Position numbers and translations under genes: made by a program. Below, piece by piece: positions 36,469 through 40,700 of a stretch of DNA of 64,000 nt. The notes under the pieces were generated by a model. It saw only the letters and a program-made list of their open reading frames with translations, searched no databases and had not been told where the DNA came from. The DNA comes from an uncultured Alphaproteobacteria bacterium. Lineage in GTDB: Bacteria; Pseudomonadota; Alphaproteobacteria; HIMB59; GCA-002718135. How positions within the stretch are numbered: the stretch's first letter is position 1; the number at the start of each line of letters is the position of its first letter. The DNA is taken from NCBI GenBank assembly GCA_902623545.1, contig CACNUI010000002.1, forward strand, positions 1 through 64,000, read 5' to 3'.

Positions 36469-36507
36469 GGAGAGATGTGAGAGCGGTTTAATCAGCACGC
36501 TTGGAAA
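36469..36507 (+). pseudogene. tRNA-Ser(GGA) 5'-half fragment (candidate attL)
   Basis: 39 nt GGAGAGATGTGAGAGCGGTTTAATCAGCACGCTTGGAAA identical to 40611-40649 of intact tRNA-Ser; identity starts at tRNA nt 1 and ends with the anticodon loop. Confidence 0.93.
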
Positions 36508-36579
36508 CCTCGTCTTGTAGCGTGACTAAAGTAACTTAATAGCTATAAATTCTATATTTCTATAACGTTAATAAGAAAG

Positions 36580-36598
36580 TGATCACAAATTGATCACA
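36580..36598. repeat. Tandem TGATCACA direct repeats, 11-bp period
   Basis: TGATCACA-AAT-TGATCACA between attL and the integrase remnant; third copy at 40538-40545 near the other end. Confidence 0.55.
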
Positions 36599-36615
36599 CT
36601 TAGAAAGGATAAAAT

Positions 36616-36753
36616 ATGGCTACGATTAGAAAATTACGAAAACGCTGGCAAGCTATCGTTAGACGAAAGAGGATACATGTCAGTAAAACTTTCTGGAAAA
36701 AATCAGACACACGCCTTTGGTCAGATAAAACAGAAGCACAAATTAAATTTTAG
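36616..36753 (+). pseudogene. Tyrosine recombinase/integrase N-terminal remnant (45 aa)
   Basis: MATIRKLRKRWQAIVRRKRIHVSKTFWKKSDTRLWSDKTEAQIKF*, typical phage-integrase N-terminal arm domain; no catalytic domain downstream; AAAGGAT RBS. Confidence 0.82.
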
Positions 36754-37349
36754 CTTTTTCCTACTTCATTATGAAGCCATCTATCAACATCCTCTGTAAA
36801 GAAATCAAGTATTAGTGCATCATTTGTTCCACTGTGAGCCTGCATATCATAACAAGCAATTCTTATAAAACCATTGGGAAATTTAATATCTGTATGTTCG
36901 TAGGTGCTTTTGCCAGTTAAATCAGAAGGGTGAGGTTTAATTGCAGTATTTATATCAATCAATTTTTTATTTATCTCCTCCTTATAAATATTGATTATTT
37001 GCTTAAAAAAATAATCTTTTTGATCAAAACATTTTTGTATATCCTGTTTAAAATCAATAAAAGCAGACATTCCTTCAATAGGAAATAAAACATTATCGGT
37101 AGAGGGATTAATAACGAAATATATTTGATCAAACTGACTAAAACTCTCGTGTTTATTAAAGTGAGCAACATAAAATTCATCTGTCAGATCAGCTTGTTTG
37201 ACTATATTTTTAGTAATTTCTCTTCCAGGAAAATAATCAGCTACTGAGTCTCCTATACTTATTCCTTCAATTGAGAATTTTTTTAGGTTTACTTCAGCTA
37301 ACGCGATAGGAGATAAAAATAATATAATTAAAAAAAGTATTTTGTTCAT
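36750..37349 (-). CDS. Secreted/periplasmic protein of unknown function
   Basis: 199 aa with signal peptide (MNKILFLIILFLSPIALAE), FSIEGISIGDSVADYF motif. Confidence 0.75.
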   Translation of the reverse strand: MNKILFLIILFLSPIALAEVNLKKFSIEGISIGDSVADYFPGREITKNIVKQADLTDEFYVAHFNKHESFSQFDQIYFVINPSTDNVLFPIEGMSAFIDFKQDIQKCFDQKDYFFKQIINIYKEEINKKLIDINTAIKPHPSDLTGKSTYEHTDIKFPNGFIRIACYDMQAHSGTNDALILDFFTEDVDRWLHNEVGKS

Positions 37350-37408
37350 ACTTTTAAATTAATGAATAAATTTGTAATTTATTTGTTGAAAATAAGGTTT
37401 AAAAAAGG

Positions 37409-38170
37409 TTATTCAAAAAACTTATCAATTGCTTCATCAATATTTTCCAAACACGTTATATCACAGTCATCATATGTTTTATATTCCCATATTAGATCAG
37501 TTACATAATCAATTGGAATAAATAGTGGTTCAAAATAATAATCATAAAGTAGGTCTTTCCCAATTAAGCTTGGTAAAACAAATATCAAACCAATTAAAAT
37601 AAAAATATTATATTTTGCATTTTCCATTAAAAAATCTGCTAATTTATTTGGAAGAAATATTCCTAAAACTCTTCCACCATCTAGAGGATTTAAGGGGATC
37701 ATATTAAAAATTGCTAGGAGCATATTAAGAATAATTAAGTTGTTCAACATATCATAAACCCATACACCTACTGGCGAATAAAACAAAATTTCAGTTGGTA
37801 AATATTTAATAAATAAAAAAAGAAGAGCTAAAAAAAATATTACTAAAATTATATTTATTAAAGGACCAGCTAAAGCAATAATTCCAAAATCTCGTTTGTA
37901 ATTCTTAAGTTTATTTAAAGCAATTGGAACTGGTTTGGCCCAGCCAATTATAAATGAGGGATTAATAAAATATAATACTAAAGGTACTAGAATTGTACCA
38001 TATTTATCAATATGCCTAAACGGATTTAGCGTAACTCTTCCTAGTTTTTTTGCGGTATCATCTCCAAAATAAAAAGCAGTATACGCATGTGCTGCTTCAT
38101 GAAAGCCCACTGCTAATAAAATTGGTAAAACCCAAACTGACAAACCATAAATAAACTCAGTTGTGAGCAT
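37409..38170 (-). CDS. M50/site-2 protease-family membrane metalloprotease
   Basis: GFHEAAHAYTAFYFGDDTA (HExxH) and NMIPLNPLDGGRVLG second motif in a multi-TM protein. Confidence 0.92.
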   Translation of the reverse strand: MLTTEFIYGLSVWVLPILLAVGFHEAAHAYTAFYFGDDTAKKLGRVTLNPFRHIDKYGTILVPLVLYFINPSFIIGWAKPVPIALNKLKNYKRDFGIIALAGPLINIILVIFFLALLFLFIKYLPTEILFYSPVGVWVYDMLNNLIILNMLLAIFNMIPLNPLDGGRVLGIFLPNKLADFLMENAKYNIFILIGLIFVLPSLIGKDLLYDYYFEPLFIPIDYVTDLIWEYKTYDDCDITCLENIDEAIDKFFE

Positions 38171-38516
38171 TTAATTCTTGAAAATAAATAGATCCGTTAG
38201 ATTTAGCTTTTTCTAAATAAAAATAAGCTCTTAAAAATTCATCAGGTTTTTTTGCGTTTTGTAAAAAACTTAAACCATAAAAAAATTGTGAGTCGGCATG
38301 ATTTTGATCAGCACCTATTTTTAACCAGTATTTTCCCTTGTCTAAATCTTTAGCTATTTTATATTTTTTATTTCCGTTAATAAATAAACAACCTAAATAA
38401 CATGACGCATCAAAATTATAATCAGTTTTATATAAAATTTCTGCACGTTTTATAGCCTCTTTAGTTTGACCAATATGCATTAAATATCCTACTTTACGCA
38501 TTTTGTTCCTCTTCAT
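38157..38516 (-). CDS. Sel1-like repeat protein
   Basis: AKDLDKGKYWLKIGADQNHADSQFFYGLSFLQ...AYFYLEKAKSNGS. Confidence 0.75.
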   Translation of the reverse strand: MKRNKMRKVGYLMHIGQTKEAIKRAEILYKTDYNFDASCYLGCLFINGNKKYKIAKDLDKGKYWLKIGADQNHADSQFFYGLSFLQNAKKPDEFLRAYFYLEKAKSNGSIYFQELNAHN

Positions 38517-39180
38517 TAGTTCTAATTTCTTTCATTAATTCTTTAATATCATTTTTTGTTATTTTATTATCTGGTTCTAATTCTACTAGAGTTCCTAATA
38601 ATTGTTCTCCAAGGAAATCTTCTTTGAACTTTAAGCTTATGTTAAATATATGATATTTTTCATTATCATTCGGACAATCAAATTCTAATATTGGTTTTAC
38701 AAAACCTTTGTTATCATGATTATTAGGTTCATCAATTCCTATAATTCCAGAGTAAATATCAATTGAACATTCATTAGTTTTTTTTATTTCAAAATCATTT
38801 TCATATTCTGTATTATCGTAACCAGAAGCATAAATTAAAATATTAGTAATCTTATTTTCAAAAAATCTTCCCCATAGACTGAAGGTTCCATCTCCATCAA
38901 GCCATGGAACGGAATAACCTGAGTATTTTCCAATTTTTAAACAAGTATCATGAGCAAGAATATCTATAAAACCATTTCCTTGATCATATTCACCTAGATC
39001 TATTTTTTCCATTTCAGGATATTTTTTATTTCTAAGTAATTTAGCATTAGCAGGACCTTCAGGATTTTCATGAGTATAAAAATGTGGTGGATCAAAATAT
39101 CTTGGAAAATTTTCAGCATCGGAGACAATCATTATTCCTCCATCAACACCAACCTCACCAATTTTTTTCCAATTAAACAT
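38494..39180 (-). CDS. Protein of unknown function (228 aa)
   Basis: ORF with overlapping neighbours; N-terminal WKKIGEVGVDGGIMIVSDAENF; no family assignable from sequence alone. Confidence 0.7.
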   Translation of the reverse strand: MFNWKKIGEVGVDGGIMIVSDAENFPRYFDPPHFYTHENPEGPANAKLLRNKKYPEMEKIDLGEYDQGNGFIDILAHDTCLKIGKYSGYSVPWLDGDGTFSLWGRFFENKITNILIYASGYDNTEYENDFEIKKTNECSIDIYSGIIGIDEPNNHDNKGFVKPILEFDCPNDNEKYHIFNISLKFKEDFLGEQLLGTLVELEPDNKITKNDIKELMKEIRTNEEEQNA

Positions 39181-39193
39181 ATTTATCCATATT

Positions 39194-40123
39194 TCAATTA
39201 ATCAATTTTCTTAATTCTTTTGGTAATTGATTATATTTATATTTTTCAAAACTTAAAATATCTATAGCTTGATCATAGTAATCTTTATAAAATTCTTTTA
39301 TCTGTTTTTTATTCATTTTGTAAGTTATGACATCTAAAATTTTATTATCTTTGCATTTTACTTCATGAAGGTGATCAAAAGGCTCTTGAATAGATTTCCC
39401 CTTACCATATGCTTTACCATTTTTAAACTTACCAAAATAAAACCAAGTTGGTTTCTTTAAGTTTTGATCTTTATATTGTATTGTTCTTCCCTCTCCTTCT
39501 AAAAGTCCTTCTTTAAATTTACCTATACTAATTTTGTAAAAAGTTTTTTTTGATTTTTTAGTTTCTATTTTTGCCCCTTTTCCTAATAGAAACTTTTTCT
39601 TTCCATTTATGAATTCACCATGAAACTGAATTTTGTGTTTCTTTTTTTTATCAAGATAAAAGGAATAGGAATATATTATTTCATCTAACCCATCTCTTAT
39701 TTTCCATTCTCCAATTATTTCAGTTCCATCTTTGTGTTTCTTTCTCCCTCTTATTAACTTACCAAAATGAAAAACCCCTTCCTCTGTTGTACCACTATGA
39801 AGTCTTCTAATACCTTTTCCATTTGGTAATCCTATGTTTTCTTTATCCCACTCTCCTTCATAGCTGTAGGGTAATGATGAGATACTTTTACCAGATATAC
39901 CAATACCATTTTTCCAAATACCTTTATATTTGTCTCCACTAGCTTCGAACTCAATTCTGCCTTTACCGTGGAATTTACCATTTTTAAACTCACCTATATA
40001 AATATCTTTTCCAGCACCCTCATTTAAATCAATTGTCATTTTTCCTTTTCCATGAGGTTTCCCATTTTTAACTTCACCAAAATATGACCAATTCTTCTTT
40101 ATTAGTTTTTGATTTTTAATCAT
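39194..40123 (-). CDS. MORN-repeat protein
   Basis: Multiple YxGEFKNGKxHGKGxx repeats (YFGEVKNGKPHGKGKM, YIGEFKNGKFHGKGRI, YFGKFKNGKAYGKGKS). Confidence 0.9.
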   Translation of the reverse strand: MIKNQKLIKKNWSYFGEVKNGKPHGKGKMTIDLNEGAGKDIYIGEFKNGKFHGKGRIEFEASGDKYKGIWKNGIGISGKSISSLPYSYEGEWDKENIGLPNGKGIRRLHSGTTEEGVFHFGKLIRGRKKHKDGTEIIGEWKIRDGLDEIIYSYSFYLDKKKKHKIQFHGEFINGKKKFLLGKGAKIETKKSKKTFYKISIGKFKEGLLEGEGRTIQYKDQNLKKPTWFYFGKFKNGKAYGKGKSIQEPFDHLHEVKCKDNKILDVITYKMNKKQIKEFYKDYYDQAIDILSFEKYKYNQLPKELRKLIN

Positions 40124-40494
40124 TTATTTGGAGGAAAAAATTTATCTATTGTTTCAAAACATTTAATTGGAATATAAAATATATATTTTTTAAATATTTT
40201 ACTTATTGATTTTTGATTATTTTGAATTGATAATTTTATAATTTTATAAATGAAATAGTGAGATAAAACAAAAAATATATAAGCTAACTCTCTCCAAAAC
40301 TGTTTAAAACTTAAAAACTCAATATTAATCATTTCCTTATATAGGTTTACCCAAACGTTAAGATACATAAAATAAAAATATCCATTATTGTAATCAATTA
40401 GTTTTTCGACAGGCCATAAAACAATTCTAAATAAAATAAATAAATATATATAAAAAAAGATTATCCAAAAAATTACTTTAAGAACATTATTCAT
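40120..40494 (-). CDS. Small membrane protein of unknown function
   Basis: Hydrophobic N-terminus; 4-bp overlap with the MORN gene. Confidence 0.65.
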   Translation of the reverse strand: MNNVLKVIFWIIFFYIYLFILFRIVLWPVEKLIDYNNGYFYFMYLNVWVNLYKEMINIEFLSFKQFWRELAYIFFVLSHYFIYKIIKLSIQNNQKSISKIFKKYIFYIPIKCFETIDKFFPPNK

Positions 40495-40610
40495 AATTAT
40501 ATTTTCAATATTATACTAAATATCTGTGACTACAATTTGATCACAATATATATCTTAAGAACTTCTATTATTAACTTATTTATTGTGATAAATCATAGGA
40601 AATAGAAACT

Positions 40611-40700
40611 GGAGAGATGTGAGAGCGGTTTAATCAGCACGCTTGGAAAGCGTGTGTAGTAGCAATACTACCGAGGGTTCGAATCCCTCTCTCTCCGCCA
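40611..40700 (+). tRNA. tRNA-Ser(GGA), encoded CCA
   Basis: Acceptor GGAGAGA/TCTCTCC + GCCA; anticodon stem-loop CACGC-TTGGAAA-GCGTG; variable arm; T-arm GAGGGTTCGAATCCCTC. Confidence 0.97.

What the first reader, a model, noticed from the sequence alone, without database searches (positions are those of the whole stretch)
36469..40700. Compact degraded integrative element split across the anticodon loop of tRNA-Ser(GGA), with reversed geometry
Seen directly: 39 nt at 36469-36507 exactly match nt 1-39 of the intact tRNA-Ser at 40611. Identity stops exactly after the 7-nt anticodon loop TTGGAAA, and both 5' flanks differ. Tyrosine recombinases commonly cross over in a 7-bp overlap at tRNA anticodon loops, with the stem arms as core sites. 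Elements usually carry the 3' part of the tRNA. Here the repeated block is the 5' half, so the element would have supplied the tRNA 5' end and its promoter. The roughly 4.1-kb size and sparse cargo resemble small tRNA-targeting elements such as tycheposons or satellites (inference).
Basis: partly seen in the sequence, partly recalled or inferred. Interest (0 to 1): 0.75.

Follow-up and report, generated by a model that had tools for sequence, protein, structure and literature searches.

The report
Mobile element remnant swapping tRNA's 5' half
A marine bacterium carries the 4.1-kb remains of a small mobile element that inserted into its only detected tRNA-Ser(GGA) gene and replaced the front half and upstream region of that gene instead of the usual back half, and related species show that this rare geometry is common in this group and switches between close relatives of the same enzyme.

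Summary
The 39-nt direct repeat (36469-36507 = nt 1-39 of tRNA-Ser(GGA) 40611-40700) is the only exact repeat of 22 nt or more in the 64-kb window. It is the remnant of an integrative element whose attP carried the tRNA 5' half. The same left end, with different cargo, sits at this tRNA in G020 and G026; collapsed versions are in G024 and G001. In G024 and G026 the working tRNA has a different, element-derived 5' half while the host's own half lies upstream. Related int-bearing elements with this geometry sit at tRNA-Gln (13.7 kb, same MORN cargo) and tRNA-Ser(GCT). At four other tRNAs across 102 genomes, all 28 placeable 5' fragments lie upstream and all 47 placeable 3' fragments downstream. 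Geometry switches within integrase subfamilies. 5' geometry is known (4% of Islander islands; archaeal pTN3), so this is a new variant of a known kind. The window copy has no intact integrase and is probably immobile alone.

The parts
36469..36507 (+). Displaced host 5' half of tRNA-Ser(GGA), nt 1-39 (left attachment junction)
   Evidence: Exact 39-nt match to 40611-40649; homologous displaced halves in G020, G024, G026, G001, G036, G102
36508..36615 (+). Left arm of the element (attP part on the integrase side), starting with a degenerate continuation of the tRNA
   Evidence: 91-94% identical DNA in G020, G024, G026; residual tRNA similarity
36579..36598 (+). Double direct repeat GTGATCACAAATTGATCACA, probable integrase arm-type sites
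   Evidence: Pattern TGATCACAnnTTGATCACA: 0 mismatches at 36580; 3 hits in window against 0.31 expected
36616..36753 (+). Truncated tyrosine integrase gene: first 45 codons and a TAG
   Evidence: 58% identical over 48 aa to a 335-aa integrase at tRNA-Gln in G005; 42/43 aa identical to stubs in G020 and G026
36750..37349 (-). Cargo 1: 199-aa probably secreted protein, no family; its stop overlaps the integrase stub's stop
   Evidence: ORF; no Pfam, PHROGs, PADLOC or NCBIfam match
37409..38170 (-). Cargo 2: M50-type membrane peptidase
   Evidence: PF02163, 1.6e-11; 87% identical gene in the tRNA-Arg element of G015
38157..38516 (-). Cargo 3: Sel1-like repeat protein
   Evidence: Weak PF08238; 91% identical in the G015 element
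38494..39180 (-). Cargo 4: 228-aa protein of unknown family
   Evidence: 71% identical in the G015 element
39194..40123 (-). Cargo 5: MORN-repeat protein
   Evidence: PF02493; 88% identical in the int-bearing tRNA-Gln element of G060, 90% in G077
40120..40494 (-). Cargo 6: 124-aa membrane protein
   Evidence: ORF; no family
40516..40610 (+). Right arm of the element; presumed new promoter of the tRNA
   Evidence: Similar sequence upstream of tRNA-Ser in G020, G024, G026, G032, G053, G061, G043; absent where the tRNA abuts lepA
40526..40545 (+). Right copy of the double direct repeat (GTGACTACAATTTGATCACA), one unit degenerate
   Evidence: 2 mismatches; TTGATCACA occurs only at 36590 and 40537 in the window
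40611..40700 (+). Working tRNA-Ser(GGA): element-derived 5' half joined to host 3' half; the only tRNA-Ser(GGA) found in this 88% complete genome
   Evidence: ARAGORN; Rfam; own-genome tRNA scan

Best explanation
This is the remnant of a small integrative element moved by a tyrosine integrase. Its attP carried the 5' half of tRNA-Ser(GGA) with an upstream promoter-like sequence. Recombination in the anticodon stem-loop left the host's own 5' half stranded beside the integrase gene and joined the element's 5' half to the host's 3' half at the far end, so the tRNA stayed intact but got a new front half and a new upstream region. Afterwards most of the integrase gene was lost (45 codons remain) and the replication genes seen in relatives are absent, leaving six cargo genes. 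Shown: the repeat, the integrase start, the paired arm repeats, the geometry, the related int-bearing elements, and the exchange of 5' halves in relatives. Inferred: the exact crossover base, that the right arm is the working promoter, and that the copy is now immobile.
For: Integrase N-terminus 109 bp after the displaced half. Matching double repeats at both ends. Same left end with different cargo in G020 and G026, collapsed in G024 and G001. tRNA-Ser in G024, G026, G032 and G053 has a different 5' half (in G024, 9 substitutions confined to nt 7-26), and in G024 and G026 the ordinary half lies upstream. Intact arrangement in G060: tRNA-Gln nt 1-42, full integrase, 88% identical MORN cargo, DUF5906 protein, intact tRNA-Gln 13.7 kb on; also G022 and G095 at tRNA-Ser(GCT). 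Cargo cluster of G015 lies between a 45-nt tRNA-Arg 5' copy and the intact tRNA-Arg. Empty site: lepA, 14 bp, tRNA-Ser, 8 bp, ABC operon in G055. Side test: 28/28 5' fragments upstream, 47/47 3' fragments downstream.
Against: No genome was found in which the window's exact left flank (sulfotransferase side) runs straight into the tRNA 3' half; the nearest flank match, G020, also carries an element. The window copy lacks a working integrase, so integration by this enzyme is inferred from the stub and relatives. One short 3' fragment (29 nt, G004) lies on the wrong side at tRNA-Ser(GGA). Promoter scans of this AT-rich region find no more than chance.
Confidence: 0.9

Rival explanations
1. The 5' half is a chance or ectopic duplication (slippage, gene conversion or amplification artefact in single-cell genomes), and the genes between are ordinary host genes.
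For: Relatives' record titles look like single-cell assemblies, which can be chimeric. G024 has both copies and no cargo.
Against: Recurs in several independent assemblies with the same left end, arms and integrase start; 5' fragments at other tRNAs are always upstream and on the same strand; cargo is not conserved at the site.
Confidence: 0.03
2. The element is a member of a non-autonomous cassette family: conserved ends plus an integrase N-terminal stub, moved in trans by integrases of relatives, with exchangeable cargo.
For: Stub homology ends at codons 43-46 in three genomes beside different convergent cargo genes; 6 of 7 variable codons in the stub are synonymous; further N-terminal stubs at tRNA-Gly in G000, G011, G012 and at tRNA-Ser in G102; an archaeal 5'-half integrase can excise a related disabled element (PMC5495485).
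Against: Simple decay of once complete elements gives the same picture; no full-length integrase of this subfamily was seen in G000; purifying selection may date from before truncation.
Confidence: 0.2
3. The present tRNA 5' half and right arm came from an earlier insertion at this hotspot, and the cargo arrived separately beside it.
For: The locus is an insertion hotspot with serial fragments; the displaced half in G024 and G102 itself has a right-arm-like sequence upstream.
Against: Left end, integrase stub, cargo and right arm form one unit with matching repeats here; most of the same cargo cluster is inside another element in G015.
Confidence: 0.1

Closest known systems
tRNA-targeted genomic islands with a 5' tDNA fragment (Islander database, PMC4383910)
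   Same: Intact tRNA plus a displaced 5' fragment upstream in the same orientation; tyrosine integrase; crossover at the anticodon region.
   Different: Such islands are 159 of 3919 in Islander (4%); here they make up 28 of 75 placeable fragments at four tRNAs. The window copy has only an integrase stub and would probably fail Islander's integrase filter.
pTN3-like archaeal integrative plasmids (PMC5495485, PMC8371274)
   Same: attP and attB share about 41 bp of the tRNA 5' half; the restored tRNA is separated from its original promoter.
   Different: pTN3 integration disrupts its own integrase gene; here the integrase start lies about 110 bp from the core and full genes occur beside the displaced half in G060, G022, G095. 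Bacterial host.
Phage satellites of the PICMI type (PMC10803314)
   Same: Int-bearing relatives are small elements with an integrase and a DUF5906 primase-like protein; no capsid gene was recognised among the proteins tested.
   Different: They integrate in tRNA genes, not next to fis; AlpA was not identified; packaging unknown. The window copy has neither primase nor full integrase.
Tycheposons (described via PMC10872708)
   Same: Tyrosine recombinase, tRNA border, cargo, size from 4 kb upward, marine host with a small genome.
   Different: The defining paper is not held, so end structure and modules could not be compared.

Membership tests
tRNA-targeted integrative island with 5' fragment | Intact tRNA and a fragment reaching the tRNA's end, same strand, 5' fragment upstream | tested here: met
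tRNA-targeted integrative island with 5' fragment | Integrase gene inside the element | tested here: not met
   Only a 45-codon stub in the window; met in G060, G022, G095. So the window copy is filed as a remnant, not as a complete island.
tRNA-targeted integrative island with 5' fragment | Empty site known in relatives | tested here: met
   lepA - tRNA - ABC in G055; tRNA within 18 bp of lepA in 21 of 60 genomes with both on one contig
pTN3-like element | Shared site is the tRNA 5' half | tested here: met
   nt 1-39 here, 1-41 to 1-45 in relatives
pTN3-like element | attP lies inside the integrase gene, which is split by integration | tested here: not met
   Integrase start is 109 bp from the displaced half; full-length genes persist when integrated
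PICMI satellite | Integrase, AlpA, DUF5906 primase, integration at fis | tested here: not met
   Window has none complete; relatives have integrase and DUF5906 but sit in tRNAs
Tycheposon | Tyrosine recombinase and tRNA-bordered cargo element of 4-200 kb | tested here: inconclusive
   Integrase reduced to a stub; tRNA border and size fit; definition taken second-hand
Tycheposon or phage satellite | Transfer in vesicles or helper-phage particles | not testable with these tools
   No relatives of the G060 integrase or the MORN cargo found in viral contigs

The most novel reading that the evidence does not exclude
A family of small marine elements in which the same integrase subfamily inserts with either half of a tRNA, so that elements repeatedly rewrite the front half and promoter of single-copy tRNA genes and make the host depend on the element's end; int-less copies with a conserved integrase N-terminal stub may travel as cargo cassettes moved in trans.
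Probability: 0.25. Interest if true: 0.75.

Novelty: new variant of a known kind. Interest (0 to 1): 0.52.

Why it matters
Integration into tRNA genes normally restores the back half and leaves the host promoter in place. Here is a bacterial group where the opposite is common, where both kinds occur at the same tRNA, and where sister integrases at tRNA-Gln and at tRNA-Leu use opposite halves. That suggests geometry is set by which tRNA half the element's attP carries, not by the enzyme, which can be tested directly. If the right arm is the new promoter, a single-copy tRNA becomes dependent on the element's end, which could explain why ends outlast cargo.

Tried and rejected
A search of the surveyed loci for an exact empty site with the sulfotransferase flank found none. 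Viral contigs gave no relatives of the G060 integrase or the MORN cargo, and six viral contigs matching the tRNA-Ser half were unrelated intact tRNAs. PADLOC and NCBIfam gave nothing for the cargo. The Rfam plastid match at 40656-40697 on the minus strand lies antisense to the tRNA and is below its cut-off. Two slips of mine: the integrase stub was first translated one base out of frame (window:36617-36751), so identities of 'intN' there are not identities of the real protein; the correct frame starts at 36616. ARAGORN's second 'intact' tRNA-Leu in G071 is really a 3' fragment (nt 25-85), so G071 has the usual geometry.

Full report
Observation. The window holds one tRNA, tRNA-Ser(GGA) at 40611-40700. 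Bases 36469-36507 repeat its nt 1-39 exactly and this is the only exact repeat of 22 nt or more in the 64 kb. The window (28.5% G+C) lies in a 1.4-Mb, 88% complete assembly; members of the same genus in the public collection are titled uncultured Alphaproteobacteria bacterium AG-915-O06 (G060) and AG-913-F06 (G051). Whether the group is Pelagibacterales or HIMB59 was not tested.

Anatomy. Reading from the displaced half: a 108-bp left arm, then the first 45 codons of a tyrosine integrase (36616-36753), ending in TAG. The stub is 58% identical over 48 residues to a complete 335-aa integrase in G005, which matches the Pfam Phage_integrase family at 1e-20. Six genes on the minus strand follow: a 199-aa protein, an M50 peptidase, a Sel1-like protein, a 228-aa protein, a MORN-repeat protein and a membrane protein. 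Then comes a right arm and the working tRNA. The double repeat TGATCACAnnTTGATCACA occurs at 36580 (no mismatch) and 40527 (two mismatches); 0.31 matches at up to three mismatches are expected in the window and three are seen. TTGATCACA occurs only in these two arms.

Same element in relatives. Of 102 genomes of the genus, G020 and G026 carry the same left end through the integrase start (95% identical DNA) followed by other cargo; G024 and G001 carry the left arm running straight into right-arm sequence at the shared repeat, as expected from deletion between the arms. G036 and a member of another genus, G102, have a 45-nt displaced half; in G102 it is followed by a 106-codon integrase start and 2.8 kb later by the intact tRNA.

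The tRNA's front half was exchanged. In most genomes nt 1-39 read GGAGAGATGTGAGAGYGGTTTAATCAGCACGCTTGGAAA. In G024, G026, G032 and G053 they read GGAGAGGTGGCCGAGTGGTTGAAGGCGCACGCTTGGAAA (one further difference in G032), with a 3' half of the ordinary type. In G024 and G026 the ordinary front half lies upstream as the displaced copy. This is direct evidence that the front half came with the element.

Empty site and promoter. In G055 the order is lepA, 14 bp, tRNA-Ser, 8 bp, ABC transporter operon. In 21 of 60 genomes where both are on one contig the tRNA begins within 18 bp of lepA, so it is probably read through from lepA there (inference). In the window and seven other genomes a similar right-arm sequence precedes the tRNA instead. 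That this arm is the new promoter is inferred; a consensus scan did not exceed chance. Only one tRNA-Ser(GGA) was found in the genome.

Int-bearing relatives with the same geometry. G060: tRNA-Gln nt 1-42, complete integrase, a MORN protein 88% identical to the window's, a DUF5906 (DNA primase-like) protein, and intact tRNA-Gln 13.7 kb away. G022 and G095: tRNA-Ser(GCT) nt 1-39 and 1-42, complete integrases, DUF5906 proteins, intact tRNA 11.0 and 7.4 kb away. G015: the M50, Sel1, 228-aa and MORN genes lie between tRNA-Arg nt 1-45 and intact tRNA-Arg; no integrase was recognised there.

Geometry in the genus. For tRNA-Leu(CAA), Arg(ACG), Gln(TTG) and Ser(GCT), fragments with an intact copy on the same contig number 28 of 5' type, all upstream, and 47 of 3' type, all downstream; none is on the wrong strand or side (fragment lists were transcribed by hand from those outputs, near-complete second copies were left aside, and the Ser(GCT) output was cut at E about 3e-12). 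At Ser(GGA) the survey of 73 loci shows 5 upstream 5' copies and 38 downstream 3' copies, with one 29-nt exception. Islander lists 159 5'-fragment islands among 3919 (PMC4383910); the methods differ and related genomes are not independent, so the comparison is only indicative. In the integrase tree G060 (5', tRNA-Gln) is sister to G051 (3', tRNA-Gln; support 92/89) and G070 (5', tRNA-Leu) is sister to G071 (3', tRNA-Leu; 99/97). The 5' and 3' fragments of one tRNA overlap at about nt 31-45, which places the crossover in the anticodon stem-loop.

How it most likely works. Integration between the tRNA and an attP holding the tRNA front half leaves the old front half beside the integrase and gives the tRNA a new front half and upstream region. 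The left end beyond nt 39 still resembles the tRNA back half (13 of 22 bases, p about 0.0002), which suggests that an ancestral attP held a longer piece of the tRNA and lost one side; loss of one or the other side would switch geometry (inference). The window copy then lost most of its integrase.

What is known. Use of the tRNA 5' half is documented for archaeal pTN3-like integrases, where the tRNA is separated from its original promoter, and is described as seldom encountered in bacteria (PMC8371274; PMC5495485). Small satellites with integrase and DUF5906 primase are known as PICMIs (PMC10803314). The combination, its frequency here, the switching of geometry and the exchanged front halves make this a new variant of a known kind. 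The literature searched is open-access only, so an earlier description elsewhere is possible.

Open point. The integrase stubs of the window, G020 and G026 stop being homologous at codons 43-46, next to three different convergent cargo genes, and 6 of their 7 variable codons are synonymous. Either three separate truncations hit nearly the same spot or the stub itself is kept; this is unexplained.

Noticed in passing
window 36616-36753; L039, L040, L105, L107, L048, L238: Integrase genes reduced to N-terminal stubs of about 43-116 codons recur beside tRNA-Ser and tRNA-Gly in several genomes; in the window, G020 and G026 they end at nearly the same codon next to different cargo.
   Followed up: partly
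window 39194-40123; L088, L042, L046, L239, L242, L243, L244, L221: MORN-repeat proteins are a recurrent cargo near tRNA-Ser, Gln, Arg, Leu, Val and Gly, in elements of both geometries; function unknown.
   Followed up: partly
L043 (G007:C11) and survey loci: Up to four serial 3' fragments of tRNA-Ser(GGA) lie downstream of the intact gene, so the same tRNA gathers insertions on both sides.
   Followed up: partly
G000:C17 (L105 7854-11205) and G000:C12:15099-18140: The window's own genome has two more remnants of the usual geometry: tRNA-Gly(GCC) with an integrase stub and a 3' fragment, and tRNA-Leu(CAA) with a 3' fragment 3 kb away.
   Followed up: no
survey loci L150, L151, L168, L179, L185, L190, L195, L199: Many genomes share a gap of about 5.4 kb between lepA and tRNA-Ser with no recognisable 5' fragment, perhaps an old insertion of the same kind.
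   Followed up: no
L040 6388-7326, L088 11737-12480, L240, L239 7249-7758: Several cargo reading frames in different elements begin with a similar leader (MVGGRIIVMKK-like), hinting at a shared upstream sequence before cargo genes.
   Followed up: no
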